Below, piece after piece: positions 14,423 through 32,091 of a DNA stretch of 64,000 nucleotides. Location: contig NZ_CP017713.1 in assembly GCF_002706425.1 (NCBI RefSeq), positions 124,001 through 188,000 on the forward strand, written 5' to 3'. The stretch is from Loigolactobacillus coryniformis subsp. coryniformis KCTC 3167 = DSM 20001 (lineage in GTDB: Bacteria; Bacillota; Bacilli; Lactobacillales; Lactobacillaceae). A program made the position numbers and the translations under genes. The notes under the pieces are model-generated. The model was not told the DNA's origin and made no database searches. It worked only from the letters and a program-made list of their open reading frames with translations. Numbering within the stretch: the first letter of the stretch is position 1; every line of letters begins with the position of its first letter.

Positions 14423-15353
14423 CAACCCAGTTAGACTCATAAGTGACAAAACTTAAAAGGAGTAATAACTGTGTTGAACCACCTCAAGTTTAAGCAAAAT
14501 CGTCACGAATTACAAGTTAGTTTCCATTACTTTTACCAGTTATGTTCATTGCTTTATCAGCGTTATTGTCCGCGTAGCGTCATTGAGCGGCGCAACGTTG
14601 AACATACTAAAATTACTGATATTAAACTTTTAGCTTTACTGTGCTTACAAGTCACACTGGGAATTCAATCGCAACGCCGCTTCTATTATCTGATGGCAGC
14701 GTTTATGCCGCGGCAAATGGTGGTATCACGTTCACGTTTCAACCGCCGCGCGCAACAATTACTGGCAGTAGTCAATGCCATTCGCTCAGGTATCACTAAG
14801 GATTATGCTCATTCGGGCGACCTAGCGATTATCGACAGTTTACCCAACCCACTATGTGCCAAAGTTCGTAATTTCAGAGTTAGAATTTTTGCTGGGAAGG
14901 CCAACATTGGCTATAATGCCACCAAGAAAATGCCATTTTATGGGTTTAAAACCCACATGGTCGTCACGGCTAATGGCTATATTCTGAATTATGTGATCAC
15001 GGCGGCCTCAGTTCATGATGCTAAGGTAGCGCCTGAGCTAATTAGCGGTTGTCCTTGTCCCAATATTTTGGCCGATGTTGGTTATGTTGGGAAAAAACTC
15101 AAGACCAGTTTTAGGGCCCTAGGCTATAACTTATGGACGCCTTATCGTTCTAATATGAAAGGTGCTAAACAGCATAATAAGCGTCAACTCAAGGCGTTAC
15201 GGCGGACAATAGAGTCACGCTTTTCAATTTTAGCCCAGCAATTTGGGATTGAAACCAATCTCACCCGTAGTCTATTTGGTTTTCAATTAAAGATTGAATT
15301 GACGATATTGGTATACAATTTAGGCTTTTTTGATTTTATGACGAACTAGCAAC
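14423..15353 (+). mobile_element. IS982-family insertion sequence
   Basis: Carries one transposase. The ends show a rough inverted repeat: CCCAGTTAGACTCATAA near 14426 on the left, and TGCTAGTTCGTCATAA read backwards from about 15352. Boundaries are approximate. The right end abuts, in frame, the remnant of a WxL-domain gene. Confidence 0.7.
14471..15349 (+). CDS. IS982-family transposase
   Basis: 292 residues from GTG 14471 behind AAAAGGAG. Motifs of the IS982 family are AIIDSLPNPLCAKVR (first Asp), NATKKMPFYGFKTHMVVTANGYI, ITAASVHDAKVAP, ILADVGYVGKKL (second Asp) and RRTIESRFSILAQQFGIE (Glu). Length is normal and the frame is uninterrupted, so it may be active. Confidence 0.92.
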   Translation: MLNHLKFKQNRHELQVSFHYFYQLCSLLYQRYCPRSVIERRNVEHTKITDIKLLALLCLQVTLGIQSQRRFYYLMAAFMPRQMVVSRSRFNRRAQQLLAVVNAIRSGITKDYAHSGDLAIIDSLPNPLCAKVRNFRVRIFAGKANIGYNATKKMPFYGFKTHMVVTANGYILNYVITAASVHDAKVAPELISGCPCPNILADVGYVGKKLKTSFRALGYNLWTPYRSNMKGAKQHNKRQLKALRRTIESRFSILAQQFGIETNLTRSLFGFQLKIELTILVYNLGFFDFMTN

Positions 15354-15793
15354 ACGCGTATCATGATATTACTGAGGGTAGTGCTACTGCCAACTTAGTG
15401 GATGGTAACGTTAATCGTGATGCAACGCAAAATTCTGATCAGAGAATCAATTTGACCGATACGCGTAGCACTGATCGTAATTGGCAATTAAAAGCTGTAA
15501 TGACTGACTTTGAAAATGGAAATGATACGATTACAGTTGGTCTTGGTAGTGGGATTGGCTTGGATATAGAAAATGGTGGTGCTGCAGTTGTAAACCCGAT
15601 TGATAGTAGCGGCGCCCAGGTTGTCATTAGTTCCGAAAATGCCATCCATCATCGTGACACTAATCAACAGTATAGCTTAACTACTAATACTGATTTAACA
15701 TTAGATCGTAATGAGTTGTTGCCAACTACTGCTGCTGGTACGACATTCCAATCTGATATTACTTGGACATTGGAAGATGGGTTAACATTTTAA
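15350..15793 (+). pseudogene. WxL-domain surface protein, C-terminal remnant
   Basis: The frame runs on from the IS982 stop codon and encodes about 147 residues with the WxL wall-binding signature: a first W-x-L at RNWQLKAVMTDF with LTDTRSTDRN before it, and a second at the C-terminus (SDITWTLEDGL). The N-terminus and signal peptide are missing, replaced by the IS. WxL proteins bind peptidoglycan non-covalently and usually occur in clusters; here only this piece is left. A GTG at 15398 could start a shorter frame, but it has no ribosome site and no secretion signal. Confidence 0.85.
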
Positions 15794-15989: not shown

Positions 15990-16019
15990 TTGCTTTTTCT
16001 CATTGCTACATTCTACTAT
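15990..16019 (+). promoter_or_regulatory. Promoter of the two-component operon
   Basis: TTGCTT (15990-15995) and TACTAT (16014-16019) are separated by 18 bases, 41 bases before the response-regulator start. Confidence 0.5.
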
Positions 16020-16059
16020 AGATTCAATGAGTCTAATTGTATCAAGGAGAAAATTAAAA

Positions 16060-16770
16060 ATGGGTAAAACGATTCTATTGGTCGAAGATGAAGATAGTTT
16101 AATTTCTTTTTTAAAAACTGAACTAAAGTTTGAAGATTATACGATAATTGTAACTAAAGATGGTCAGGAGGCGTTAACTAGCTATGCTAGTAACCAGCAG
16201 CAGATCGATTTGATTATATTGGATTGGATGTTGCCTAAATTAGATGGACTGGAAGTAATGCGGCGCATTCGCCGCCACGATGATGTACCGATCATTATGA
16301 TGACGGCGCGTGACTATATTGGCGATAAGGTAGCCGGGTTAGATAATGGGGCCGATGATTACATTACGAAACCGTTTGAAATTGAAGAGTTATTAGCGCG
16401 CATTCGTGTCATTATTCGGCGGGAGCAAAGGCATGATGAGCAGACACAAACCAATTATCAAATTGCTGACTTAGCATTAGATACCAAGTCGCGGCAGGTG
16501 CACCGAGCCGGTAAAATAATTCAGTTAACGCAACGCGAATATAATTTATTGCTGATATTGATCAAACACATCGGAGAAACTTTAACACGTGATGAGTTAT
16601 TGGATCTGGTGTGGGGCGTTGATTTTGAAGGCCAGCTAAATATTGTTGATGTCTATATTCGCTATTTACGGCACAAAGTTGATTTTGAAAGCCAGCCGTT
16701 GATCCATACCGTACGGGGTGTGGGCTATACGCTGAGGGATGATAACGATCATGCGAAAAAAGCAGAATAA
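16060..16770 (+). CDS. OmpR-family response regulator
   Basis: 236 residues from ATG 16060 (AAGGAG upstream); the frame extends further 5' but without a ribosome site. The receiver domain shows acidic pocket residues in LVEDED, the phospho-acceptor Asp55 in LIILDWMLPKLDG, Thr in MMTARD, and Lys in ITKPFEIEELLARI. The C-terminal winged helix includes REYNLLLILIKHIGETLTRDELLDLVWG and ends TVRGVGYTLRDD. It overlaps the kinase gene by 20 bases, so the two are translated together. The next operon is the dlt cluster, making envelope control a reasonable guess, not a demonstrated link. Confidence 0.93.
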   Translation: MGKTILLVEDEDSLISFLKTELKFEDYTIIVTKDGQEALTSYASNQQQIDLIILDWMLPKLDGLEVMRRIRRHDDVPIIMMTARDYIGDKVAGLDNGADDYITKPFEIEELLARIRVIIRREQRHDEQTQTNYQIADLALDTKSRQVHRAGKIIQLTQREYNLLLILIKHIGETLTRDELLDLVWGVDFEGQLNIVDVYIRYLRHKVDFESQPLIHTVRGVGYTLRDDNDHAKKAE

Positions 16771-18154
16771 TACTAATACGAGCGCAGCACAGATCACTAA
16801 GGCATACGCCATAATTTTAATTTTAATTACGTTACTGATGAGCGGTTCAATTATCACGGTGGTTGGTTATCGGCTAGTTACAAATAAGCGTGAAGAAGCG
16901 CAGTCACTGATGAGGATTTTAAAGCAATCCTTGGTTGGGGACCAACCAGATTGGGTACGCTGGCGCGGTGAGACTACCCTCGATACTAGTAACACGTTTG
17001 TAAAAGTAAAAGTAGATCCGCCTACGCGCACACAAGCTGTCTTTTATTCGCCGCGCACCAAAGGCTTTTTGAATGAAAATTATCACGCATGGCCACTTTT
17101 TAAAGATGTTCAGTATCGCTCTAAACAGGGGGTCTACTATCATATTATTGATTACGATCATGCTAGTGAGGGCCCCAATAAAAAGCCAGAAATTAAGTAC
17201 GAAATTTGGTTAAGTTTAAATAATATGGTCCATATATTTAAAACGATCTTAGAAACAATTAGTTTAATCACCATATTTAGTTTCTTAATTGGCTTATGGT
17301 TTATTTCTAAGTTAGCGCGGCGGTTGAATCAACCATTGGTAGATTTAACCAAGGCAACCCATGAAATAAATAAGGCTGAGAATATTACCTATCATGAATC
17401 TTTACCAATTTCTGGTAATCCACAAGAAGTGCATGAATTGAGTATTGAATTTAATCGGTTGTTAAGTTCGCTCAACCAGCAAATATTACGTGAGCATCAG
17501 TTTGTTTCCGATGCTTCACACGAATTAAGAACGCCGTTAGCCGGTGTACGGGGTCATATAAGTTTAATTCGCCGACATGGTCAAGCGCATCCAGATATTG
17601 TGCCGACCTCACTAGATTATATTGATTCCGAATCGCTACGGATGCAACACTTAATTGAAAGCCTATTGCAACTATCACGTATGGATCATGCTGAATTAAC
17701 CTTGGAATATTTTAATTTAAGTGATTTATTAGCCAAGATTTGTGCGCGCTATCAGCAACAAATTCCCCAGCAATTATGCTTAAAAATTCTACCGACTACA
17801 ATTGTTTATGCTAACTGTGATAGTGTTGAACAGATCATAACGGCATTATTAGATAATGCACATAAATACTCACCTACCGCTGCGACTATTACGCTTGAAG
17901 TAACGACTGATCCTAATGATATTGCGGTGAAGGTTTTTGATGAAGGTAACGGAATCAGTGATCAGGATAAACCGCATATTTTTGATCGTTTTTATCGTGC
18001 TGATCAATCTCGTTCCCAAAAAATCACTGGTTCTGGTCTCGGGCTAGCAATTGCCGCCCGCTTGGTTGATTTGAATCATGGTAAGATTGCGGTGCAAGAT
18101 AATGTACCGCACGGTAGTTGTTTTGTTGTCATTCTGAAAAAAACTAAACCTTAA
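16751..18154 (+). CDS. Membrane sensor histidine kinase
   Basis: 467 residues if started at ATG 16751; ATG 16739 is also possible, but GAGGG lies too close to it. Two membrane spans (about 20-42 and 170-190) bracket an extracellular sensor loop of some 125 residues. A HAMP region follows, then the HisKA box FVSDASHELRTPLAGVRGH (His about 257), the N box DNAHKYSP, and the G boxes DEGNGISDQDKPHIFDRFYRAD and GSGLGLAIA. The form is like ArlS/CssS-type kinases. It partners with the upstream regulator. What it senses is unknown. Confidence 0.92.
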   Translation: MRKKQNNTNTSAAQITKAYAIILILITLLMSGSIITVVGYRLVTNKREEAQSLMRILKQSLVGDQPDWVRWRGETTLDTSNTFVKVKVDPPTRTQAVFYSPRTKGFLNENYHAWPLFKDVQYRSKQGVYYHIIDYDHASEGPNKKPEIKYEIWLSLNNMVHIFKTILETISLITIFSFLIGLWFISKLARRLNQPLVDLTKATHEINKAENITYHESLPISGNPQEVHELSIEFNRLLSSLNQQILREHQFVSDASHELRTPLAGVRGHISLIRRHGQAHPDIVPTSLDYIDSESLRMQHLIESLLQLSRMDHAELTLEYFNLSDLLAKICARYQQQIPQQLCLKILPTTIVYANCDSVEQIITALLDNAHKYSPTAATITLEVTTDPNDIAVKVFDEGNGISDQDKPHIFDRFYRADQSRSQKITGSGLGLAIAARLVDLNHGKIAVQDNVPHGSCFVVILKKTKP

Positions 18155-18193
18155 TTCTGAGAAATTTAAAGAATTTATTCAGAAATTATTAGT

Positions 18194-18257
18194 AGACCCG
18201 ATTTAAATAGCTAACTACAATTCCTATTGTAATCAACTGTTTGAACTGGGTCTTTTT
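18194..18257 (+). terminator. Terminator after the kinase
   Basis: AGACCC and GGGTCT form the base of a long hairpin containing an inner ACAAT TCCT ATTGT stem; five T follow. It separates the two-component operon from the dlt operon. Confidence 0.65.
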
Positions 18258-18410: not shown

Positions 18411-19340
18411 ATGGCGACTATGTCACTGGTTATCCCATGCTATAACAATGAAAAGATGATTCCGTTATTCTATGCCGCGGCTGCAGAAGTGGTTAATACG
18501 ATTCAACAGACTTGGGAAAATATTGATGTTGAGTATTGGTTTATTGATGATGGCTCGTGCGATCGAACTTTAGATCAATTGCAGCAGCTGCAGGCTAGAG
18601 CAAAATTTGTGCATTATATTTCTTTCTCACGTAATTTTGGTCAAGAAGCGGCAATCTATGCTGGCTTGCAACAGGCCACTGGTAAATACGTGGCTTTAAT
18701 GGCGGGTGATCCACAGATACTACCTAATTTATTGCCACAAATGCTATCTGCCATTATTGAAGAACATTACGATATCGTTGTTGGCACTAGACAAGCAGCC
18801 AGAACAGAAGTGCCTAATTTACGGGCCTGGTTTATAAAAAAAATCAACCATTTTACTAAAGTGAAAGTTAATGCGCCTGTTGGGGATTGTCGGCTGATGA
18901 CTAGGCAAGTGCTTGATGCTGTGATGTCATTGCCTGAATATAATCGATTTTCATTAGGAATTTTCAATTGGGTCGGCTTCACAACAAAGTATTTAGCCTA
19001 TCAAAATGATGAAGACGGCGATGGGCAGCCCACTAGAGGATTTTGGCAAGTGATCAGTGATTCAGTGAATGGAATCAGTGGCTTTTTGAGCGGGCCATTA
19101 GCTTTAGTTTTTTATGTTGGCTTAACTTCTTTTATTGCGGCGCTGATTGTGCTAGTAGTCATTGTTATGCGGCTATTAGTGCTTAATGATCCGGCCAATG
19201 GTTGGCTAGCACTTATTTCAATCATCCTGTTGCTTGGCGGGATTCAGCTATTATGTTTGGGCATCGTTAGTAAGTATATTGCTGAAATTTATTTAGAAAC
19301 GAAACATTGGCCTATTTACATTGCTAAAGAAATTAAATAG
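18411..19340 (+). CDS. GtrB-like family 2 glycosyltransferase
   Basis: 309 residues, ATG behind AAGGAAAGGAG. The N-terminal GT-A domain has SLVIPCYNNE, WFIDDGSCDRT, and ISFSRNFGQEAAIYAGLQQATG, the pattern of polyprenyl-phosphate glycosyltransferases (GtrB, CsbB, Ppm). Two membrane spans occupy the C-terminal third (LALVFYVGLTSFIAALIVLVV and LISIILLLGGIQLLCLG), then KYIAEIYLETKHWP. Such enzymes make undecaprenyl-phosphate-sugar used to decorate teichoic acids outside the cell. The usual DADLQ metal site reads MAGDPQ here, keeping one Asp. No GtrA flippase or YfhO-type polymerising transferase is next to it; it is followed 63 bases later by dltX. Confidence 0.85.
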   Translation: MATMSLVIPCYNNEKMIPLFYAAAAEVVNTIQQTWENIDVEYWFIDDGSCDRTLDQLQQLQARAKFVHYISFSRNFGQEAAIYAGLQQATGKYVALMAGDPQILPNLLPQMLSAIIEEHYDIVVGTRQAARTEVPNLRAWFIKKINHFTKVKVNAPVGDCRLMTRQVLDAVMSLPEYNRFSLGIFNWVGFTTKYLAYQNDEDGDGQPTRGFWQVISDSVNGISGFLSGPLALVFYVGLTSFIAALIVLVVIVMRLLVLNDPANGWLALISIILLLGGIQLLCLGIVSKYIAEIYLETKHWPIYIAKEIK

Positions 19341-19403
19341 TTCAAATAAATACTTAGTCAGAAATGATCGTAACTAGTGACTGAGTGAAAGGGGGCGGAC
19401 TGA

Positions 19404-19550
19404 ATGGAACGCTTAAAAGCGATTATAGCACGGCCAGGTGTTAAGTTTATTTTACAAACTATTTTTTATTTTTTTATCTTGTTAATTCTGGTTTATTTGT
19501 ATAGTTATAGCGGAATCAGCAATAGCAAGTTTATTTACACTGAATTTTAG
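19404..19550 (+). CDS. dltX: Teichoic acid D-alanylation protein DltX
   Basis: 48 residues from ATG 19404 (GGGGGCGGA upstream). One membrane span (about 15-34, FILQTIFYFFILLILVYLY) and the conserved C-terminus ending FIYTEF are the DltX hallmarks; the terminal residues carry the D-alanine intermediate to DltD in characterised systems. It sits immediately before dltA, the usual position. Short enough to be missed by automatic callers. Confidence 0.92.
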   Translation: MERLKAIIARPGVKFILQTIFYFFILLILVYLYSYSGISNSKFIYTEF

Positions 19551-19578
19551 ATACCATGTTTTTGGGGGTAAAAGAACG

Positions 19579-21081
19579 ATGATAGCAGATATTATTAAGG
19601 CAATCGATATGGTTGCCATACAAACACCTAGTGCAGTAGCTTATAATTATTTAGGTCAAACTAATACGTATGCTGAACTAAAACACTTTTCCGATTCACT
19701 AGCTAATTACATTGATCATCTGGATTTACCGGCGGGCTCACCAATCATAGTTTACGGTGATCAGACTTTTTCGATGATCGCGGTTTTTTTGGGCTGTGTT
19801 AAATCAGGTCACGCCTACATCCCAGTAGATCTGCATTCACCAAATGATCGGTTGACGATGATTCAGGCGATTGCCCAACCACAGCTGGTTATTGCCGTAA
19901 AACCATTACCAGTGAAATTACTGGTGGCTAATACTATTGAAGCACCGCAACTACAAGCTATTTTTCGCCAAGCTAATCCGTACCAATTAACCCATGCGGT
20001 GAAGGATACTGATAATTTCTATATTATTTTCACTTCTGGAACTACTGGTAAGCCCAAGGGCGTGCAGATCAGTCATCAAAATCTACTTAGTTTTGTCAAT
20101 TGGATCTTGACTGATTTTGGGCTGCCAGAAAAACCGACCAGCTTAGCGCAAGCACCATATTCATTTGATTTATCGGTGATGGATCTCTATCCCACCTTGG
20201 TCATGGGCGGTCAGCTGCAAGTGTTGCCTAAGGCGATAACTGATAATTTCAAGACCTTGTTTGCCACCTTACCTAGTTTATCTTTAAATATCTGGGTATC
20301 AACCCCTTCGTTGATCGATATTTGCCTGTTAGAGCCAAACTTTAAACAAGCAAAGTATCCCCAATTGTCGCATTTTATGTTTTGTGGTGAAGAATTAACG
20401 CATCAGACCGCTGCTAAATTAAAGCAACGCTTCCCAGCCGCCAAAATTTTTAACACTTATGGTCCCACCGAGACCACGGTGGCTGTGACTGGTATTGAAA
20501 TTACGACTGCGATACTTAATGATTACCAACGCTTGCCCATTGGTTACGCTAAAGCAGACACTACGGTTAAAATTGATCCGATAACACCGACAAAGCAATC
20601 TGGCGAGCTTATTATTAGTGGTCCCAGTGTTTCAAAGGGTTACCTTAATTCACCAGAAAAAACCAAACAAGCTTTTTCTGAAAAAGGTTATCGTAGCGGC
20701 GATTTAGTGACGATGACTGCGTCCGGTTTAATTTTTTATCGCGGGAGAACCGATTTTCAAATTAAATTAAATGGTTACCGAATTGAATTAGAGGAAGTTG
20801 ATCATTATCTAAGTCAGCAGAAACTGATCAAGCAAGCGGTGGCCGTACCAAAATATAATCAACAACACAAAGTTACCGCATTGTTGGCTTATGTTGTTTT
20901 ACAGACTGCGACGGATCGACCTGCATTTGAAGTTACCAAAATTTTGAAGCAGCAATTGCAGCGGGAAATGATGGCCTACATGATTCCGCAACGATTTATC
21001 TATCGTTCCTCATTGCCACTGACTATTAATGGCAAAATTGATGTTAAAGCCATGATTAAAGAGGCCAATACAAATGATTAA
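19579..21081 (+). CDS. dltA: D-alanine--carrier protein ligase DltA
   Basis: A 500-residue adenylation enzyme that activates D-alanine and loads it on DltC. The P-loop is FTSGTTGKPKGV (about 152-163), the A5 motif is NTYGPTETTVAVTGIE, and the later motifs are GYRSGDLVTM, FQIKLNGYRIELEEVD and NGKID at the C-terminus. GGGGGTA precedes the ATG. It overlaps dltB by eight bases. Length matches the family. Confidence 0.96.
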   Translation: MIADIIKAIDMVAIQTPSAVAYNYLGQTNTYAELKHFSDSLANYIDHLDLPAGSPIIVYGDQTFSMIAVFLGCVKSGHAYIPVDLHSPNDRLTMIQAIAQPQLVIAVKPLPVKLLVANTIEAPQLQAIFRQANPYQLTHAVKDTDNFYIIFTSGTTGKPKGVQISHQNLLSFVNWILTDFGLPEKPTSLAQAPYSFDLSVMDLYPTLVMGGQLQVLPKAITDNFKTLFATLPSLSLNIWVSTPSLIDICLLEPNFKQAKYPQLSHFMFCGEELTHQTAAKLKQRFPAAKIFNTYGPTETTVAVTGIEITTAILNDYQRLPIGYAKADTTVKIDPITPTKQSGELIISGPSVSKGYLNSPEKTKQAFSEKGYRSGDLVTMTASGLIFYRGRTDFQIKLNGYRIELEEVDHYLSQQKLIKQAVAVPKYNQQHKVTALLAYVVLQTATDRPAFEVTKILKQQLQREMMAYMIPQRFIYRSSLPLTINGKIDVKAMIKEANTND

Positions 21082-22291
21082 TTTACAGCCATATAGTAAT
21101 CCGATGTATTTTGTTTGGCTCTTAGTGAGCCTATTGCCATTGATGATTGGGTTATATTTTGGTAAGCGGTTTGTGGCCTATCAAACGATTATTTCTGGGA
21201 TATTTTTATTATTGATTTTTGGTGGCTCAAAGTGGCAACAAGGCTTAGCGCTAATTGGCTATATTATTTTTCAGTTTATAGTTGTTGATGGCTATGTGCG
21301 CTATAAAAAGCGGGCCAACCAGACCTGGGTATTTGTTGGTGCCGTGTTACTAAGTATATTGCCACTGGTTATTGTCAAAATCACGCCGGCAGTTCAAGTG
21401 GGCCGGAAGTCTTTGGTTGGGTTTTTAGGAATCAGCTATTTAACCTTTAAATCAGTCCAAATGATTATGGAAACACGTGATGGGACCATTAAAAAATTTG
21501 ATCCGATCATGTTTGCTCGGTTCTTACTATTTTTTCCCACCGTTTCATCAGGTCCAATTGATCGGTATCGTCGCTTTCAGCATGATTATTTAAAAATACC
21601 GGATCGGGAACGTTATTTAGAAATGTTAGGTAAAGCGGTGCACTATATTTTTCTAGGTTTCTTATATAAATTTATACTGAGCTATTTATTTGGTACTGTT
21701 ATGTTGCCGCACATAGCCCATATTGCCATCATGCACCGGGCCGCATTTTTCCATACGGGAATTTCACTAGCCTTAGTTGGCTACATGTATACGTACAGTA
21801 TGTATTTATTTTTTGATTTTGCCGGTTACAGCCTATTTGCGGTAGCCGCCAGTTACTTGATGGGTATTGAAACACCGATGAACTTTAACCAACCTTTTAA
21901 GGCGCATAATATTAAGGATTTTTGGGATCGTTGGCATATGACGTTGTCATTTTGGTTTCGTGATTTTATTTTTATGCGTTTAACGTTCTTTATCATGAAA
22001 CATCATTTGCTTAAAAAACGCGTTCGTATTTCACAGGTCACTTATCTAGCCAACTTCTTAATTATGGGCTTTTGGCATGGTGTGACCTGGTATTATATCG
22101 TTTATGGGCTTTTCCATGCGAGTGCAATCATCACTAATGATTATTGGTTAGCGTTTAAGAAAAAACATCGCCGATTGCCGCATAATCGGTTGACTGAAGG
22201 TATCGCGATTTTTATCACGTTTAACGTCGTTTGTTTTAGTTTTTTAATTTTTTCAGGTTTTTTGAACACGCTTTGGTTTCAGGCACATTAA
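21074..22291 (+). CDS. dltB: D-alanyl transfer protein DltB (MBOAT)
   Basis: A 405-residue membrane-bound O-acyltransferase with about ten or eleven hydrophobic segments. The catalytic histidine is in LIMGFWHGVTWYYIVYG (about residue 336), and the conserved DRWHMTLSFWFRDFIFMR and FDFAGYSLFAVAASYLMGI loops are present. It passes D-alanine from DltC across the membrane to DltX. The start overlaps the end of dltA, which suggests translational coupling. Confidence 0.96.
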   Translation: MINLQPYSNPMYFVWLLVSLLPLMIGLYFGKRFVAYQTIISGIFLLLIFGGSKWQQGLALIGYIIFQFIVVDGYVRYKKRANQTWVFVGAVLLSILPLVIVKITPAVQVGRKSLVGFLGISYLTFKSVQMIMETRDGTIKKFDPIMFARFLLFFPTVSSGPIDRYRRFQHDYLKIPDRERYLEMLGKAVHYIFLGFLYKFILSYLFGTVMLPHIAHIAIMHRAAFFHTGISLALVGYMYTYSMYLFFDFAGYSLFAVAASYLMGIETPMNFNQPFKAHNIKDFWDRWHMTLSFWFRDFIFMRLTFFIMKHHLLKKRVRISQVTYLANFLIMGFWHGVTWYYIVYGLFHASAIITNDYWLAFKKKHRRLPHNRLTEGIAIFITFNVVCFSFLIFSGFLNTLWFQAH

Positions 22292-22316
22292 ATTATATAA
22301 ATAAGGGGTAATCAAG

Positions 22317-22550
22317 ATGGATACAAAACAAGCAGTAGTCGCTATTTTAAAAGAATTAACTGGCACCGATGTCAGTAATAATTTAGATGATAATTTATTT
22401 GATTCCGGGATGATCGACTCCATGGCAACAGTTGAAATGTTATTGGAGTTGCAAGAAAAATTTGGGATCGACGTACCTGTATCTGAATTTGATCGCAGTG
22501 AATGGGATACGCCTAATAAAGTTATTGCGAAGGTGGAATCAATGAAATGA
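22317..22550 (+). CDS. dltC: D-alanyl carrier protein DltC
   Basis: 77 residues, with Ser35 in [13 protein letters not shown] as the phosphopantetheine attachment site. AAGGGG precedes the ATG. The stop codon overlaps the dltD start (ATGA). Confidence 0.95.
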
Positions 22551-23806
22551 AGGTTAAGGGTAGTCAACTATGGTTGATATTTGGACCGGTGATCGTTGCT
22601 GCTAGTTTATTGGTTTTATTTTTATCACTACCACTTGGACTGGGTCATTTTAGTGCGCAAACCCAAAAAAAGGCTGCAGTTTCACTATCATCCAAGGTTT
22701 TTCGGGGTCGTAAAATTAAACAGCAGGCACTGCAAAATGGTTATGTACCCTTTTTTGGCTCATCAGAGTTATCACGGCTGGATGCGTTTCATCCAGCTGT
22801 TTTGGCTGCCAAGTACCACCGAGCTTACCGACCATTTCTGTTAGGTGCCGCGGGGTCACAGTCATTGACTCATTATTTTATAATGCAAAATTTAGGCCGT
22901 CAGTTAGAGGGGAAAAAGGCAGTTTTCATTATTTCACCTCAATGGTTTACTAAGTCAGGACAGCGGCCTGATGCTTTTGACTTTTATTATTCACCCTTGC
23001 AAACAACTGATTGGATTATTAATGCCAAAAACAATATTGCTGATCGTTATACAGCTAAGCGCTTGCTCCAGATGCCATCAGGCCGTGCTAGCCAAGTCAC
23101 TGCAGCAGCGCTTAAAAATATTGTAAATGGTAAACCAATTTCAAATTTTCAAAAAATTTTTCTACAAGGTAAAGAGACGATTCTATTAAATGAAGATTCA
23201 TTATTTTCACGGTTTCAAGCGAATAAAAACCTAGCTGAAGTCCAAAAAGGTGAAAAATTTTTACCCCCGCATTATTCAGTTAGTCAACTAAATCGTCTGG
23301 CCATAAAAGTGGGGCACCATGAAACCAATAGCAATCAACTAGGCATTAAAAATTCGTTTTATAAAACGCGATTAAGTGGTGATCGAATCAAAGTATTAAA
23401 AAATTCGCAGAATAATTTCGATTATCGCCAGTCTCCAGAATATAGTGATTTTGAACTTGTACTAAATCAATTTGCTAAATGGCACGTTAAGGTTCAGTTT
23501 ATTATTCCACCGGTTAATGCGCGCTGGGCGAAGTATACTGGTTTGTCTATGCCAATGATCCGACAAACTGATCAAAAAATTGAATATCAGTTACGACAAC
23601 AAGGTTTTAATAATGTGTTGGACTTAACCAATAACGGTAGCGAAAAGTATTTTATGGAAGATACGATCCATTTAGGCTGGCGCGGCTGGGTAAAGGTCGA
23701 TCAAACCGTTGATCCATTCTTAACCAAGCAACAACCGCAACCAAATTATAATATTCAAAATAGATTCTTCACTAAAAAGTGGCAAACAGCCACGAAAATC
23801 GAATAA
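22547..23806 (+). CDS. dltD: D-alanyl-lipoteichoic acid biosynthesis protein DltD
   Basis: 419 residues: a single N-terminal membrane span (about 8-30) and an extracellular SGNH-like domain. The nucleophile region is [12 protein letters not shown] (Ser at 72-73), and the C-terminal Asp/His pair is in [15 protein letters not shown], as in DltD enzymes that transfer D-alanine from DltX to teichoic acid. The last 16 codons and the stop lie inside one arm of a perfect 11-bp hairpin that reaches the next gene. Confidence 0.95.
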
Positions 23807-23820
23807 AGGGGCTGTTTGCC
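23781..23820 (+). promoter_or_regulatory. Perfect 11-bp hairpin at the dltD/dltE junction
   Basis: GGCAAACAGCC (23781-23791) and GGCTGTTTGCC (23810-23820) are exact inverted copies. The right arm ends on the base before the TTG start of the next gene and lies directly after its AAAGGGG ribosome site, whose last two G are in the stem. No U-tract follows, so it is unlikely to be a plain terminator. It could limit translation of the downstream gene or mark an mRNA processing site. Confidence 0.55.
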
Positions 23821-24975
23821 TTGCTAAATCGATCCCGGATGGTCAAAGTCTTATTTATTGTCGGTTTTGTTTTGCTGGGGCTGGTTTTAATCAGATTTGT
23901 TGCCAGTGGGTCGCGCCAAAGTGTTACGCCAACGCATAGAATTGCCGCAGCCAGCGTTGAACCAACACACCAAAATACCGCAGTTAAACAGGCAATTAAT
24001 TCTAAGTTTCAAACTAAGCTAGTTCAAACCCTAAAACAAGATAATTATTCTGGATCGGCCATTATTTATGATAATGGACAGCAAGTAGCTAGTTATAATG
24101 CCGGCTACGCTAACTATTTAAGCCGAATTAAAAATCAAGCTAACACAATGTATGAGATCGATTCAATTCAAAAATCAATTACGGGTGTGTTAGTCATGCA
24201 GCAAGTGGCCAAACGTCAACTAGCATTATCCGACCGGCTAAATAAGTTCTACCCGAATGTTCCTGGTAGCCAAAATATTACAATTCGACAAATGTTAAAT
24301 ATGACTTCTGGGTTGATTATGACTGGTCCAGTTGGGCCTATGGTAGCCAAAACAGATACACAGATTATTCAGAGTGATATTTCACGGGTACATTATCTTC
24401 GTGTAATGCACGGTCGTTGGAATTATCAGGCGATTAATTTTAATTTGTTATGTGGTATTTTAGAAAAAATCACTCATCAAAGCTACCAACAACTGTTTTA
24501 TGAGCAAATTATTGAACGGCTCCATTTGCAACGCACGGCCTTTGCCTATAAATTACCTAACAGTACGATAGCCGCAACCGGATACGATGGCCTGATCGGT
24601 AAGAATCAAAAACTAATTTATACCAAGCCTAGTGTTAGAAATCAAGCATTAGAGCAAGATGAGTTGGGCACCGGTCAAGTTTACATGAGTGTCGGTGATC
24701 TTTATCGAGTTGAAAGCGCAATTGTGTCTGGTAAAATAGTTCCATTGCAATTGCTGCAACAGCTTTATCAAGGTGGCTCATATAGTAAATATGAAGCTGG
24801 TTTTTACACCCATAAGCAGGTCAAATCAGCTAATGGTTCCGGATATGGTTTTGAATCTTCCATTCACATCAGTCCTAATGGTAAAAATGCCGTTATTTTA
24901 CTCAGTAATTATCAAGAACCATTGTTTAGAGTCAGAAGTTTAGCACAAAAATTTGATTATTTATTGTTTAATTAG
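23821..24975 (+). CDS. dltE: DltE-like serine hydrolase (teichoic acid D-Ala esterase candidate)
   Basis: 384 residues from TTG 23821 (AAAGGGG upstream; a GTG at 23779 lies inside dltD and has no clear site). One N-terminal membrane anchor (about 10-27) precedes a class C beta-lactamase-like domain. The SxxK motif is SIQK (Ser115, Lys118 in YEIDSIQKSITGV), and the second motif region is NYQAINFNLLCGIL. In Lactiplantibacillus plantarum the equivalent dlt-linked serine hydrolase, once called PbpX2, is DltE, which removes D-alanine from lipoteichoic acid and has the same SIQK motif as I recall it. Position in the operon supports that role; a plain D-Ala-D-Ala carboxypeptidase is the alternative. 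There the gene precedes dltX, here it follows dltD. Confidence 0.75.
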   Translation: MLNRSRMVKVLFIVGFVLLGLVLIRFVASGSRQSVTPTHRIAAASVEPTHQNTAVKQAINSKFQTKLVQTLKQDNYSGSAIIYDNGQQVASYNAGYANYLSRIKNQANTMYEIDSIQKSITGVLVMQQVAKRQLALSDRLNKFYPNVPGSQNITIRQMLNMTSGLIMTGPVGPMVAKTDTQIIQSDISRVHYLRVMHGRWNYQAINFNLLCGILEKITHQSYQQLFYEQIIERLHLQRTAFAYKLPNSTIAATGYDGLIGKNQKLIYTKPSVRNQALEQDELGTGQVYMSVGDLYRVESAIVSGKIVPLQLLQQLYQGGSYSKYEAGFYTHKQVKSANGSGYGFESSIHISPNGKNAVILLSNYQEPLFRVRSLAQKFDYLLFN

Positions 24976-25071
24976 AGCGTATCTCAAAGGGCGCTCAGTC
25001 TGCTAGCCACGGCTACGCTGATTGGCTATCAATCAATAACTTTTAGTTGCAAGCTACCTTAGGAGGTCACT
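24976..25071 (+). other. 96-bp operon gap with a hairpin
   Basis: Within the otherwise tight operon this gap contains CAGTCTGCTAGC and GCTACGCTGATTG, which pair around CACG to make an imperfect hairpin, and no clear promoter. GCGCTCAGTCTG is reminiscent of the repeats at 40972 and 47781, so it may be a decayed copy. The AGGAGG ribosome site of the next gene lies at 25060. Confidence 0.4.
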
Positions 25072-26340
25072 TTGTTACGATTAAAACATCAATGGGCCAA
25101 TGACTTGGTTAATTTTAGTCAGTGGTTAAGTGAACGTAAATTTTATCAAGTAATCCTAATGTCATTGACGACTATCTTTCCAATCGCCGCTGTAGGTGCA
25201 TTTATTACTTTGATTGATAAAATAATTTTTATTCCCACCGGAGTGTTTAATCAATTTTATCAGGTTAGTAAATGGCTACCATTTTATGCTGAATGTAGTA
25301 ATTTCTGGTCGAGCCTAGATATTTTAATCAATAATTTAGTTGTTATTTGGTTGGCCTTTTTAGTGGCAGCCAACGCGGCTAAGTTGAAGCAGCAAAATGA
25401 ACAGTTAACCGGAATTGTCAGCGGTACATTTTTGTGGCTAGGTAATCAATCACTATTCATGAGTGCCACTAAGCATGGCATGCTGCAGTTAACATTAAAT
25501 TTTAGTGGTTTGGCAATGCACGGTGTTTTTGCAGCAATTATGGTTGGCTTCTTCGTTAGCTGGTTGCTAGGGCGCTGCCCTAAACACCAGCTGTTAGCGA
25601 TGACCTTTTTAATTTTAATTGGCGCTGCCACCGCAGCCGGCTTTCATACATTCATTCCTGATAGTTTTACGGGAATGCTAATGTCAAAGTTAACGCAAGT
25701 CACTGCTAACTGGGGAACCAATATTTTTCTAATGGTCTTGATCGTTCTAATTAGTAATTTATTGATGATTTTCGGTATAATAGGGCCGCTTAATTCGGGT
25801 GATGGATATAATGATGCAGTATTTTCAATCCAGAATTTGAATTACGCTTTACAGTATCATCACCTAGGCAATATACCATACCCCATTAATTTACATGCTA
25901 TTTATGATACCTATGCTTTTGTCGGGGGTAGCGGCATGCTGCTGGCACTATTAATTGCTATTTTGTGGCGCGCGCGTGATCAACGAGTACAACAAACTGC
26001 AAAAATAAGTTTTTTACCGGTCCTTTTTAATTTGAATTCGCCGATGTTTGTGGGATTGCCGGTTCTATTTAACCCACTATTAGTGATTCCTTTTATTGTG
26101 ACCCCGATCGTAGCGTGTTTAGTTGCTTGGCTATTTGTTAGTTTACATTTGATGCCAACTGCCGTTTATCCAGTACCGCTGACCACACCAGGATTTTTGA
26201 AAGGCTTTTTAGCAACCGGTGGTAATTGGGTATCCCTATTGGTCGGCATCCTTAATCTGCTGATTGCCACAATTATTTATTTACCGTTTGTCACCTTGAA
26301 TGATAAATATGACTTAGTTAGTAAAGTTGGTGAAAAATGA
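25072..26340 (+). CDS. EIIC-like permease in the dlt operon
   Basis: 422 residues from TTG 25072, six bases after AGGAGGTCAC. It has about ten hydrophobic segments and the overall plan of the lactose/cellobiose/chitobiose PTS EIIC family: MSLTTIFPIAAVGAF near the N-terminus, AFVGGSGMLLALLIA (about 280), and FNLNSPMFVGLPVLFNPLLVIPF (about 320). In sugar-transporting members the last segment normally reads NEP, whose Glu helps bind sugar; here it is NSP. No EIIA or EIIB gene lies nearby. This suggests the protein has left the PTS and moves another substrate, perhaps a lipid- or wall-related sugar. The stop overlaps the next start (ATGA). Confidence 0.7.
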   Translation: MLRLKHQWANDLVNFSQWLSERKFYQVILMSLTTIFPIAAVGAFITLIDKIIFIPTGVFNQFYQVSKWLPFYAECSNFWSSLDILINNLVVIWLAFLVAANAAKLKQQNEQLTGIVSGTFLWLGNQSLFMSATKHGMLQLTLNFSGLAMHGVFAAIMVGFFVSWLLGRCPKHQLLAMTFLILIGAATAAGFHTFIPDSFTGMLMSKLTQVTANWGTNIFLMVLIVLISNLLMIFGIIGPLNSGDGYNDAVFSIQNLNYALQYHHLGNIPYPINLHAIYDTYAFVGGSGMLLALLIAILWRARDQRVQQTAKISFLPVLFNLNSPMFVGLPVLFNPLLVIPFIVTPIVACLVAWLFVSLHLMPTAVYPVPLTTPGFLKGFLATGGNWVSLLVGILNLLIATIIYLPFVTLNDKYDLVSKVGEK

Positions 26341-27185
26341 GTAAAAAGAGAATCTTGTATAGTTCATTAATTTTATTAATTACGGCGGTCGTTGGATTGT
26401 CAGGCTACCAGTGGCAAAAGCAAGCGATTGGTTTACAGCAAAGACAGTTTCGCTCACCAATGGATCCAATTTTCTTAGTGCCTGGTAGTTCGGCCAATCA
26501 AAATCGATTTGATTCGTTAGTAACGTTACTAAATAGAGGTCGTTCTAAGCGTAGCCTTTTAAAAGTAACGGTCCAAACGAATGATCAATTGAAATTTAGT
26601 GGTCATTTACAGCCGGGGGACAAACATCCTTTTATTGTCGTTGGTTTTCAGAATAATCGTGATGGTTACGCCAATATTGAACGCCAAGCACGATGGTTCG
26701 GCATTGCTTATCGAAAATTAGCTACGATCTATCATTTCAACCATTTTTCGGGAATGGGTCATTCAAATGGTGGCTTAGTACTGACCTTTTTCTTGGAAAA
26801 GTATTTGCCTAAAAACAATACCGTCGATCGGTTAATGACGATCGCCTCACCATTTAATTTAGAAAGAAATACAACAAAAAAAACGCCGATGTTGAAGAAT
26901 TTGATTGCACATAAGGCTAACTTGCCCAAAAAGATGAAAGTCTATTCAATTGCAGGAACTCAAAATTATAAGGGTGATGGGATCGTTCCCTTCGTTAGTG
27001 TTGATAGTGGTAAGTATATTTTTCAAGATCAAGTCGCCGGCTATACAGAAATAATTGTGACCGGGGCAAATACCACACATTCCAATTTACCAAAAAACCG
27101 CCAAATTGTTCATATTATGCGTCAATATATTTTGCAGGAAGACAATTCAAAAACAGTAAGGCATAAGCAAATGCGGACACCATAG
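26337..27185 (+). CDS. DUF915 alpha/beta hydrolase, membrane-anchored
   Basis: 282 residues. An N-terminal hydrophobic segment (ILYSSLILLITAVVGLSGY) acts as signal or anchor. The catalytic triad is readable: nucleophile Ser in FSGMGHSNGGL (about 143), Asp in NYKGDGIVPFVS, His in NTTHSNLPKN. DUF915 proteins are cell-surface-associated hydrolases of lactic acid bacteria, in some cases lipases/esterases; the substrate is unknown. It overlaps the EIIC-like gene by four bases and ends the extended dlt operon. Confidence 0.8.
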   Translation: MSKKRILYSSLILLITAVVGLSGYQWQKQAIGLQQRQFRSPMDPIFLVPGSSANQNRFDSLVTLLNRGRSKRSLLKVTVQTNDQLKFSGHLQPGDKHPFIVVGFQNNRDGYANIERQARWFGIAYRKLATIYHFNHFSGMGHSNGGLVLTFFLEKYLPKNNTVDRLMTIASPFNLERNTTKKTPMLKNLIAHKANLPKKMKVYSIAGTQNYKGDGIVPFVSVDSGKYIFQDQVAGYTEIIVTGANTTHSNLPKNRQIVHIMRQYILQEDNSKTVRHKQMRTP

Positions 27186-27204
27186 AATACGTGAATGAGT
27201 AGAA

Positions 27205-27247
27205 AGCTGATCTCGATAAGGCTCGTCTTTGTCGGGGTCGGCTTTTT
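27205..27247 (+). terminator. Terminator of the extended dlt operon
   Basis: AGCTGATCTCGA pairs with TCGGGGTCGGCT (three G-U pairs) and is followed by five T. It is the first clear terminator after the one at 18194, supporting a single transcript from 18411 to 27185. Confidence 0.75.
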
Positions 27248-30184: not shown

Positions 30185-32091
30185 GTGCGCCCGGCATGGG
30201 CGTCAACTAGGTGGTGAAAGTCCACTGCGGGCCGTAGTAGTCGGAACCGCTAGCCAAAGGCAAGGCCTTTATCGTGAGGTGAAGACTGAAGGAAGCCTGA
30301 TGAGCAAAGTACTGCACCGATGAACAAGAAGCAGCTATAAGGCCGGAAGTAACTGGATAAGGTGGCCAAACACACTGAAGTCCGATACTACCCGAAGTTA
30401 CGACAGTAAAGCTGACGGTGACATGGTACGAAAGTTGACGTTCTTACCCGGGGAGACCTGTACACACAATCCTGATTTTCTTAGGGAATACCCAAATGAC
30501 AAGGAAATATGAGTTCAAAGCAAGTCAGAAATGGCTGGTTAAGTGTACAGGAGTCAGCCGAGGTCATAGTAGTGGGTAACCATGAAGGACCAAACAATAA
30601 TAACTCATATTGCGACTGGAAGTGAAGACGATGCGAAAATCGCAGAAAACAGAACAAGCTGACCGCCAGCGGATGATAGGTCTGGAAGACCAAAGACAAA
30701 CTGGGGCGCGTAGTATCGCCTCCGGTGAAGGAGAAAAGATGAGTGGCACTCAGTTTCAAGCATTAGTTTTGGCCCGCAACAACCTGAATTTGGCTTATCA
30801 ACGTGTGGTCAGGAACAAAGGGGCGGCCGGAGTTGACGGTATGACCGTTGATGAATTGAAACCGTACCTGAAAGTACATCGCGAAGAATTACTCGCAGAA
30901 TTGGCCAATGGGACTTATAAACCGGCACCAGTCAAGCAAGTCTCAATTCCAAAGCCCAACGGTGGAACGCGTAAGCTTGGCATTCCGACCGTGATCGACC
31001 GGCTAGTCCAGCAGGCCGTGGCCCAGGTCCTTTCGCCGATATATGAACAGATCTTCGCCAACAATAGTTTTGGTTTTCGACCCCAACGCAGTGCACATGA
31101 CGCAGTTCAACAGGTCGTTCAGCTAGATAATGCGGGTTATCACTATGTGGTTGATCTGGATTTGAAGGCCTACTTCGATACGGTTAATCATGACATGCTT
31201 ATGAAGTTTCTCAAGCAGCGAATTAGTGACCGCTGGATACTACGGCTCATTCGCCGTTTTCTGACTAGTGGCACCATGAATGGGCAATTGTTTGAACGCA
31301 GTGAGAAAGGCACACCGCAAGGCGGGCCGATCTCGCCACTGTTAGCGAATATTTATCTCAACGAATTCGACCAAGAACTAGCTAGGCGCGGTCATGAATT
31401 TGTCCGTTACGCCGATGACTGCAATATCTTTGTTAAAAGTCCACGCGCGGGCCAACGAGTCCTCGCTAGTGTGACTCGTTTTCTCGAGCATGAGTTAAAA
31501 CTCACGCTCAATCAGGAAAAGACACAAGTGGTCGCCACCAACAGAATGAAGTTCTTAGGTTTTACGTTGGGCCACACTAAAGGCAGGGCTTTTCCCTATC
31601 CGGTGTGGTCAGCGAAGCAGCGAGTTAAACAAGCATTGAGGCGGCTGACTAAGCGTAATCGTGGTGTATCCGAAGACCAAATAATGGCAGAGATTCGTCA
31701 AAAGATGCGCGGTTGGTTGCAGTATTACAGCTTGGGTAGAATGAAGCGGTTCATCACGGAATTAGATGCGTGGCTGCGGTCACGTATTCGCCAGTACATT
31801 TGGAAACAATGGAAGAAAGCCAAAACTAGAGAGAACAACTTGAGCGGATTAGGATTTACGAAAGATGAAGCTAAGCTATCCGCTAACACGCGTAAAGGGT
31901 ACTGGCGGACAGCGCATAGTAAAACGCTGTGCCGTACCCTAACTAACAAAGAGCTGGAACGTCGTGGACTCATTAACTTGAGTCAGACGCTCCAGCAAAT
32001 TCAGAGTGCTTAAATTATTGAACCGCCGTATACGGAACCGTACGTACGGTGGTGTGAGAGGACGGTAACTTACAATTACCTCCTACTCGAT
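30185..32091 (+). mobile_element. Group IIC intron
   Basis: The 5' end GTGCGCCCGGCATGGG (from 30185) and the following CAACTAGGTGGTGAAAGTCC are typical of group II domain I. A maturase gene occupies domain IV. Domain V is recognisable near 32020-32060 (GAACCGCCGTATACGG... pairing with CCGTACGTACGG...), and a domain VI hairpin (GGTAA...TTACC) ends at about 32080. The 3' end is placed at CTACTCGAT (32091), uncertain by a few bases. Inserted directly behind the ackA terminator in the same orientation. Confidence 0.88.
30631..32013 (+). CDS. ltrA: Group II intron reverse transcriptase/maturase
   Basis: 460 residues from ATG 30631 (GGAAGTGA upstream). Reverse-transcriptase blocks: KGAAGVDGMTVDEL, VSIPKPNGGTRKLGIPTVIDRLVQQAV, FGFRPQRSAHDAV, VDLDLKAYFDTVNHD, GTPQGGPISPLLANIYLNE, and the catalytic VRYADDCNIF (about 260). 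The C-terminal maturase (GIIM) domain includes WLRSRIRQYIWKQWKKAKTR, the form seen in bacterial class C introns. There is no HNH endonuclease domain, again fitting class C. It looks intact. Confidence 0.94.
   Translation: MRKSQKTEQADRQRMIGLEDQRQTGARSIASGEGEKMSGTQFQALVLARNNLNLAYQRVVRNKGAAGVDGMTVDELKPYLKVHREELLAELANGTYKPAPVKQVSIPKPNGGTRKLGIPTVIDRLVQQAVAQVLSPIYEQIFANNSFGFRPQRSAHDAVQQVVQLDNAGYHYVVDLDLKAYFDTVNHDMLMKFLKQRISDRWILRLIRRFLTSGTMNGQLFERSEKGTPQGGPISPLLANIYLNEFDQELARRGHEFVRYADDCNIFVKSPRAGQRVLASVTRFLEHELKLTLNQEKTQVVATNRMKFLGFTLGHTKGRAFPYPVWSAKQRVKQALRRLTKRNRGVSEDQIMAEIRQKMRGWLQYYSLGRMKRFITELDAWLRSRIRQYIWKQWKKAKTRENNLSGLGFTKDEAKLSANTRKGYWRTAHSKTLCRTLTNKELERRGLINLSQTLQQIQSA

What the first reader, a model, noticed from the sequence alone, without database searches (positions are those of the whole stretch)
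18411..27185. Extended dlt operon: glycosyltransferase, dltXABCD, DltE-like, EIIC-like, DUF915
No terminator is seen between 18257 and 27205, and several junctions overlap. The standard machinery that adds D-alanine is joined by a candidate remover (DltE-like, SIQK motif), a GtrB-like transferase, a lone EIIC-like permease and a surface hydrolase. The set could form a wider teichoic acid editing system that adds, removes and perhaps glycosylates, with a two-component system just upstream. I know of no described system with this combination.
Basis: partly seen in the sequence, partly recalled or inferred. Interest (0 to 1): 0.75.

Follow-up and report, generated by a model that had tools for sequence, protein, structure and literature searches.

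The report
Dlt operon with two accessory genes
A lactic acid bacterium carries the known machinery that adds D-alanine to its surface polymers, followed by an eroded sugar-transporter gene and a surface hydrolase gene of unknown function which, in the related genomes checked, occur only alongside that machinery.

Summary
In detail: GT2, dltX, dltA, dltB, dltC, dltD, a DltE-like gene, a lone EIIC-like gene and a DUF915 gene lie on one strand between two strong terminator hairpins (18194-18257, 27203-27247). Three parts behave differently. (1) dltXABCD plus DltE is known in kind (L. plantarum dltEXABCD). (2) GT2 is absent from the HK-dltX gap of the seven relatives where that gap is held: an insertion, not a conserved part. 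(3) The last two genes are the interesting part: a near-constant EIIC-DUF915 pair. In 151 Lactobacillaceae genomes, all 107 with this DUF915 type have a dltD match, and 0 of 31 dltD-less genomes has it. It lies within 10 kb of dltD in 35 of 107 (10 of 29 genera), in several arrangements needing at least four changes of linkage on its tree. Paired EIICs lack the phosphotransfer His (0 of 143 keep it) and mostly the Glu (25 of 143 keep it); 21 of 27 unpaired EIICs keep both. Best reading: an EIIC-derived, non-PTS membrane protein coupled to an outward-facing serine hydrolase, an accessory of LTA D-alanylation. The chemistry is inferred. A 2024 paper calls DUF915's function unknown.

The parts
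16003..16770 (+). OmpR-type response regulator (start uncertain, probably about 16060)
   Evidence: Pfam Response_reg + Trans_reg_C; also upstream of dlt in relatives
16739..18154 (+). Histidine kinase
   Evidence: Pfam HisKA + HATPase_c
18155..18187 (+). Conserved element with three spaced repeats right after the kinase stop: candidate regulator site or promoter
   Evidence: lies in a 45-58-nt stretch 87-91% identical in three Loigolactobacillus relatives; no binding test
18194..18257 (+). Terminator-like hairpin and T run between kinase and dlt unit
   Evidence: -22 kcal/mol, z -5.0; a similar hairpin precedes dltX in relatives, by eye
18411..19340 (+). GtrB/CsbB/PgfS-like GT2 glycosyltransferase, an insertion not seen at dlt in the relatives checked
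   Evidence: absent; weak paralogues elsewhere
19404..19550 (+). dltX
   Evidence: PF12459, 67.9 bits vs cut-off 25
19579..21081 (+). dltA
   Evidence: TIGR01734 over cut-off
21074..22291 (+). dltB
   Evidence: TIGR04091 over cut-off
22317..22550 (+). dltC
   Evidence: TIGR01688 over cut-off
22547..23806 (+). dltD
   Evidence: TIGR04092 over cut-off
23821..24975 (+). dltE-like D-Ala esterase (TTG start)
   Evidence: 185 bits to 8agr; catalytic Ser, Lys, Tyr and motif-3 Gly kept
25072..26340 (+). EIIC*: lone EIIC-fold membrane protein without the His/Glu phosphotransfer residues (TTG start)
   Evidence: PF02378 over cut-off; H250 to I and E334 to S against ChbC; model matches ChbC/MalT
26337..27185 (+). 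DUF915 serine hydrolase with N-terminal hydrophobic stretch, overlapping EIIC* by ATGA
   Evidence: PF06028 186 bits vs 22; S143, D214, H248 kept; 294 bits to 3lp5
27203..27247 (+). Intrinsic terminator closing the unit
   Evidence: -32.4 kcal/mol, z -6.1, 0 of 200 shuffles as good

Best explanation
[quoted passage not shown] DUF915 is a membrane-anchored, outward-facing alpha/beta serine hydrolase. EIIC* is a PTS-derived elevator-fold membrane protein that has lost the residues for phosphorylating sugar transfer. Most likely DUF915 acts on an ester or acyl bond of the polymer that Dlt makes or of its products (D-alanyl-LTA or a D-alanyl-glycerol fragment), and EIIC* works with it in the membrane, by moving the small product without phosphorylation or by holding or presenting the substrate. 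Shown by comparison: the pairing, the confinement to genomes with dltD in the sample, the repeated linkage, the loss of PTS residues and the intact hydrolase triad. Inferred: membrane topology, substrate, transport, and that the two proteins form a complex. I put about 0.8 on the module being a functional accessory of D-alanylation and about 0.3 on the specific chemistry; the figure given is for the accessory claim together with a non-PTS role of EIIC*.
For: Co-occurrence: 107 of 107 genomes with pair-type DUF915 (A2 profile, E<=1e-75) have a dltD match; 0 of 31 dltD-less genomes have it (Fisher p 3e-22, not corrected for relatedness). Within the four genera that vary and hold the pair, the chance that all pairs fall in dlt+ members is 0.002. 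Outside the family, all nine f4/g43 genomes with a match over 300 bits have dltD. Linkage: within 10 kb of dltD in 35 of 107 genomes, 10 of 29 genera. Arrangements: after dltE (Loigolactobacillus, Paucilactobacillus), after dltD (Ligilactobacillus ubinensis, L188), before dltX in line (g30), head-to-head with dltX or dltA (g2, g7, g8, g17, g39), one reversed gene away (g37). At least four changes between linked and unlinked on the tree of 85 pairs. Pairing: EIIC directly before DUF915 in 41 of 41 EIIC-cluster members, 34 of 40 loci (20 of the 40 had been picked as possible unpaired controls) and 80 of 80 named loci. PTS residues: of 143 distinct paired EIICs 0 keep His250 (one has a gap) and 25 keep Glu334; of 27 unpaired EIICs, not all distinct, 21 keep both. 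DUF915 triad kept.
Against: The pair is not within 10 kb of dltD in 72 of 107 genomes, so it need not be co-transcribed with dlt. 13 dltD+ genomes lack it, as does one of six dltD+ genomes in the window's genus, and the control B. subtilis matches DltD but not PF06028: Dlt works without it. Some dltD matches are damaged (G007 four stops, G038 one stop, G130 two pieces, G139 a fragment), so G007 may hold the pair without a working dltD. One pair-type DUF915 (G018, L217) has no EIIC beside it. Lower-scoring DUF915 proteins (about 210 bits) without an EIIC beside them (five looked at, L212-L216) also sit in dltD+ genomes, so co-occurrence with dltD is not specific to the pair type in the order. 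Co-occurrence is partly phylogenetic. Six of 27 unpaired EIICs also lack the His. No biochemistry exists for the substrate.
Confidence: 0.65

Rival explanations
1. The pair is a sugar-uptake module (lone EIIC using EIIA/EIIB encoded elsewhere, hydrolase trimming an acylated sugar), and its position behind dlt is accidental.
For: EIIC* is over the Pfam EIIC cut-off and its model matches ChbC and MalT; 72 of 107 pairs are not near dltD. In staphylococci DUF915 genes are reported near PTS subunits EIIC and IIA (PMC11878206, passage).
Against: 0 of 143 paired EIICs keep His250 and only 25 keep Glu334; no PTS subunit was found among the scanned genes beside the window's pair; a nutrient module would not be expected to be confined to dltD+ genomes or to join dlt in different arrangements.
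Confidence: 0.12
2. The pair protects against cationic antimicrobial peptides or bacteriocins in cells with D-alanylated envelopes; it shares regulation, not substrate, with Dlt.
For: Linkage to dlt and to a two-component system in the window's genus and Paucilactobacillus. In L. paracasei the dlt operon and mprF are controlled by the response regulators ApsR/PsdR that answer lantibiotics (PMC10858260, abstract and passages).
Against: Confinement to dltD+ genomes is more than shared regulation predicts; most of the unlinked pairs have no homologue of this regulator beside them.
Confidence: 0.15
3. The module serves wall teichoic acid (for example D-Ala transfer from LTA to WTA), like S. aureus FmtA.
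For: FmtA is needed for WTA D-alanylation, and the acyltransferase that loads WTA is unknown (PMC12505958, abstract); DUF915 is a putative surface serine hydrolase. The window's own genome has two PF04464 matches.
Against: 62 of 107 pair genomes have no PF04464 (TagB/TagF-type) match, and the family is commoner in dlt-less genomes (24 of 31) than in pair genomes (45 of 107).
Confidence: 0.07
4. All nine genes, GT2 included, form one teichoic acid editing and glycosylation system.
For: One strand, one unit between two terminators.
Against: GT2 is absent from the HK-dltX gap in seven of seven related loci where it is held; no flippase or GT-C gene was seen beside it.
Confidence: 0.08

Closest known systems
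L. plantarum dltEXABCD (pbpX2-dltXABCD) operon with D-Ala esterase DltE
   Same: Same Dlt proteins and a DltE homologue with SIQK, catalytic Tyr and motif-3 Gly kept
   Different: dltE comes after dltD rather than first; pocket residues 345, 347 and 349 differ (Asn at 347 in the dlt-operon members of both genera); GT2, EIIC* and DUF915 are added. L. plantarum EGD-AQ4 has an EIIC*-DUF915 pair with no dltABCD within the 8 kb held on each side (L156)
Lactose/cellobiose-family PTS EIIC (ChbC 3qnq; MalT 5iws)
   Same: Fold, and sequence over residues 209-421 for ChbC
   Different: No phosphotransfer His/Glu, no EIIA/EIIB found beside it, partnered with DUF915
DUF915 alpha/beta hydrolases (3lp5 L. 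plantarum, 3ds8 Lin2722, 3fle)
   Same: Same family, triad kept; 3lp5 is close (294 bits)
   Different: Function recorded as unknown (PMC11878206, passage); that passage names PTS EIIC and IIA among staphylococcal neighbours but not the pairing in lactobacilli nor dlt
S. aureus FmtA
   Same: Homologue of the DltE-like protein (5zh8, 1.3e-21); teichoic acid D-Ala esterase (PMC12505958, abstract)
   Different: No EIIC* or DUF915 partner known to me (recalled, not searched)
GtrB/CsbB/PgfS polyprenyl-phosphate glycosyltransferases
   Same: GT2 family; matches sll0501 (5eke) and the PgfS model
   Different: Below the PgfS equivalog cut-off; not conserved at dlt

Membership tests
dlt operon | DltA, B, C, D over curated cut-offs and DltX, in order | tested here: met
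DltE (LTA D-Ala esterase) | Homology and catalytic Ser, Lys, Tyr (128, 131, 213) | tested here: met
   residue roles from PMC10241514 passages
DltE (LTA D-Ala esterase) | Substrate-site residues Tyr338, Arg345, His347-Gly348-Leu349 | tested here: inconclusive
   Tyr338 and Gly348 kept; 345, 347, 349 changed
DltE (LTA D-Ala esterase) | Esterase activity on D-alanyl-LTA | not testable with these tools
   needs biochemistry
PTS EIIC permease | EIIC fold and family score | tested here: met
   PF02378 54.7 bits vs 30.7; 3qnq E 2.3e-11 by Foldseek
PTS EIIC permease | Curated lactose/cellobiose EIIC subfamily score | tested here: not met
   TIGR00410 138.7 bits vs 236
PTS EIIC permease | Phosphotransfer His and conserved Glu | tested here: not met
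   window: Ile and Ser; kept in 0 of 143 and 25 of 143 paired EIICs. Role of these residues: PMC12900739 passages; the equation with ChbC numbering is mine
PTS EIIC permease | Cognate EIIA/EIIB in the same operon | tested here: not met
   no PTS subunit among the window genes scanned around it
DUF915 hydrolase | PF06028 score and Ser-Asp-His triad | tested here: met
   186 bits vs 22; in 20 aligned proteins S143 and D214 invariant, H248 at least 90%; that these are the triad is read from the motif and family fold
GtrB/CsbB/PgfS system | Equivalog score | tested here: not met
   PgfS 242.6 bits vs 500
GtrB/CsbB/PgfS system | Flippase and GT-C partner in the genome | not tested
   none seen beside it; the genome was not searched for them

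The most novel reading that the evidence does not exclude
EIIC*-DUF915 is a second, general teichoic-acid editing machine of Lactobacillales: a PTS permease turned into a non-phosphorylating membrane carrier (or substrate-presenting partner) for a surface hydrolase that cuts or moves the D-alanyl groups laid down by Dlt, recycling D-Ala or D-alanyl-glycerol and so setting surface charge. It would give DUF915 a function and an EIIC fold a non-PTS role in the cell envelope.
Probability: 0.3. Interest if true: 0.8.

Novelty: new variant of a known kind. Interest (0 to 1): 0.6.

Why it matters
Two DUF915 families are found in nearly all lactic acid bacteria and were in 2010 taken to suggest an essential but unknown function (PMC3017865, passage); in 2024 the function was still unknown (PMC11878206, passage). 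I did not establish which of those families is the EIIC-paired type. Tying the paired type to LTA D-alanylation gives a direct test in L. plantarum, where D-alanylated LTA is a known host cue (PMC10241514, abstract and passages). It also suggests that the lone EIIC genes of this pair are not PTS sugar transporters, whatever their annotation.

Tried and rejected
GT2 as a system part: rejected, absent at dlt in the relatives where the gap is held, only 49-52% identical best matches in the genus. A WTA role: tested with PF04464 and disfavoured. A terminator in the dltE-EIIC gap: none. Neighbours of stand-alone pairs: varied between genera, gave no further clue (Pfam of one f4/g43 locus). DltE by NCBIfam: only weak matches to AmpH and class C beta-lactamases; the PDB comparison settled it. 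Literature: in the rows shown by searches for DltE, DUF915, dltXABCD, cell surface hydrolase with EIIC, dlt with EIIC, and Loigolactobacillus with teichoic acid (several lists were cut), titles and abstract starts describe no EIIC-DUF915 pair with dlt; one passage reports PTS EIIC and IIA near DUF915 in staphylococci. The library is open-access only. A comparison of the EIIC* model by VIA-align was unavailable; Foldseek was used. The second structure job was not used.
Full report
What is there. The window lies in a 2.95-Mb genome of the genus Loigolactobacillus: contigs of its same-genus genomes have the same lengths as contigs of L. jiayinensis, L. zhaoyuanensis, L. iwatensis and L. backii. 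No call named the species itself. Nine genes on the + strand, 18411-27185, are GT2, dltX, dltA, dltB, dltC, dltD, a DltE-like gene, a lone EIIC-like gene and DUF915. Two strong hairpins with T runs bound the unit; the terminator-like sites inside it are no more than chance gives. Shared transcription is likely but unproven.

Upstream. The response regulator and kinase are separated from the unit by a conserved 33-nt element with spaced repeats and a terminator-like hairpin. In relatives without GT2 the dltX start can lie close behind the hairpin's T run: 22 nt in L. zhaoyuanensis (L115) and 13-14 nt in two Paucilactobacillus loci (L120, L121), though about 40 to 100 nt in the four others read (counted by eye). 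In the three close cases the dlt transcript probably starts upstream of the hairpin or reads through it. In the window GT2 sits between that hairpin and dltX.

GT2. It is a GtrB/CsbB/PgfS-like enzyme below the PgfS equivalog cut-off. In eight genomes of the genus the best match outside this locus is 49-52% identical, including one of 51% in the window's own genome. It is absent from the HK-dltX gap of three Loigolactobacillus relatives (the fourth contig, L037, is cut there) and of four Paucilactobacillus loci. It is an insertion, not part of a conserved system.

DltE. The best PDB match is L. plantarum DltE (8agr, 185 bits), next S. aureus FmtA. SIQK, Tyr213, Tyr338 and Gly348 are kept; Arg345, His347 and Leu349 are not, with Asn at 347 in the dlt-operon members of the two genera. 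L. plantarum DltE removes D-Ala from LTA (PMC10241514, abstract and passages). This part of the finding is known in kind.

The pair. EIIC is followed directly by DUF915 in 41 of 41 EIIC-cluster members (window included), in 34 of 40 further loci (20 of them had been picked as possible unpaired controls, 6 are unpaired), and in 80 of 80 named loci from the genome collection, which were fetched by DUF915. Of 18 more loci 10 have the pair. The 8 without are one high-scoring DUF915 (L217, 350 bits) and seven lower-scoring paralogues, of which L220 is cut by the contig end. A few copies look broken (L080, L207). The pair also occurs in a genus of another family of the order (f4/g43, L204-L208). The window's own genome has two more DUF915 genes, about 25% identical, with no match to this EIIC within 1.5 kb.

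Co-occurrence. In the same 151 Lactobacillaceae genomes 120 have a dltD match (G007, G038, G130 and G139 are damaged or partial) and 107 have pair-type DUF915 at E<=1e-75. All 107 have the dltD match; 13 dltD+ genomes lack the DUF915; 31 lack both. Adjacency of EIIC was not checked in every one of the 107. The Fisher p of 3e-22 ignores relatedness; a within-genus test over the four genera that vary and hold the pair gives 0.002. In the window's genus five of six dltD+ genomes have the pair and the two dltD-less genomes do not. In the order draw of 148 genomes (which shares genomes with the family draw) all 32 with A2 matches at E<=1e-60 have dltD, against 93 of 148 overall; but 8 of these 32 are lower-scoring (about 210 bits), and the five of them looked at have no EIIC beside DUF915, so that figure is not evidence for the pair alone. 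Nine non-Lactobacillaceae genomes, all g43, score over 300 bits, and all nine have dltD.

Linkage. The pair-type DUF915 lies within 10 kb of dltD in 35 of 107 genomes, 10 of 29 genera. Arrangements seen: dltXABCD-dltE-EIIC-DUF915 (Loigolactobacillus, Paucilactobacillus); dltXABCD-EIIC-DUF915 (Ligilactobacillus ubinensis, L188); EIIC-DUF915 before dltXABCD in line (five g30 genomes; dltX was not recognised in L098 and dltC not in L096); head-to-head with dltX or dltA (one or two loci read in each of g2, g7, g8, g17 and g39: L103, L104, L209, L210, L211, L218; the rest by coordinates); dltXABCD-dltE, then one to three other genes, then EIIC-DUF915 (g37); and one g6 genome 6.5 kb downstream on the other strand. 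On a tree of 85 pairs the linked and unlinked states need at least four changes. Direction is not known. A chance placement within 10 kb is about 1% for a 2-Mb genome.

EIIC*. Against ChbC, His250 and Glu334 align with Ile and Ser in the window. In 143 distinct paired EIICs His is kept in 0 (one gap) and Glu in 25. In 27 unpaired EIICs, not all distinct, both are kept in 21 and Glu in 25. In Glc-superfamily EIICs the Glu is described as essential for transport and phosphorylation and a His in HP1b as implicated in phosphotransfer (PMC12900739, passages; equating these with the ChbC positions is mine). The AlphaFold model (pLDDT 85.7) matches ChbC and MalT best, with large rmsd (12.2 and 7.7 A): the EIIC fold is clear, its conformation is not. 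EIIC* fails the functional features of a PTS permease; it may still move something by an elevator motion.

DUF915. Ser143, Asp214 and His248 are kept, with a hydrophobic N-terminal stretch. Its place outside the membrane is inferred. L. plantarum 3lp5 is a close relative.

Interpretation. The pair is best read as an accessory of LTA D-alanylation that can sit in or out of the dlt operon. WTA is unlikely to be its general substrate, because 62 of 107 pair genomes have no PF04464 match, although the window's own genome has two. The chemistry (ester cleavage, product uptake or substrate presentation) is inference.

Noticed in passing
window 18155-18257: Three spaced repeats plus a terminator-like hairpin directly upstream of the dlt unit, conserved in Loigolactobacillus and with a similar layout in Paucilactobacillus; in three relatives dltX starts only 13-22 nt after the T run, which suggests a leader that is read through or a dlt promoter upstream of the hairpin.
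   Followed up: partly
window 14471-15790: An IS transposase (DDE, 14471-15346) lies next to a short ORF resembling the end of a WxL surface protein (15398-15790; 22.9 bits, below the cut-off of 25), perhaps an interrupted surface-protein gene.
   Followed up: no
window 30610-32010: Group II intron reverse transcriptase/maturase just after ackA.
   Followed up: no
151 Lactobacillaceae genomes: TagB/TagF-type PF04464 is commoner in dlt-less genomes (24 of 31) than in pair genomes (45 of 107).
   Followed up: partly
L113 (G005) and window 27313: In another genus the pair is followed directly by a C69 peptidase homologue (PepD), as in the window, where a terminator lies between.
   Followed up: no
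L231, L234, L235, L239, L240, L248: Six unpaired EIICs have Asn in place of the phosphotransfer His; four of these keep the Glu and two do not.
   Followed up: no
L204-L208 (f4/g43): The same EIIC-DUF915 pair in another family of the order; in L204 a DUF4767 protein gene follows it.
   Followed up: partly
G007, L103: A genome with the pair head-to-head with a dlt operon whose dltD match has four stops inside: possibly the pair outliving a decaying dlt operon.
   Followed up: no
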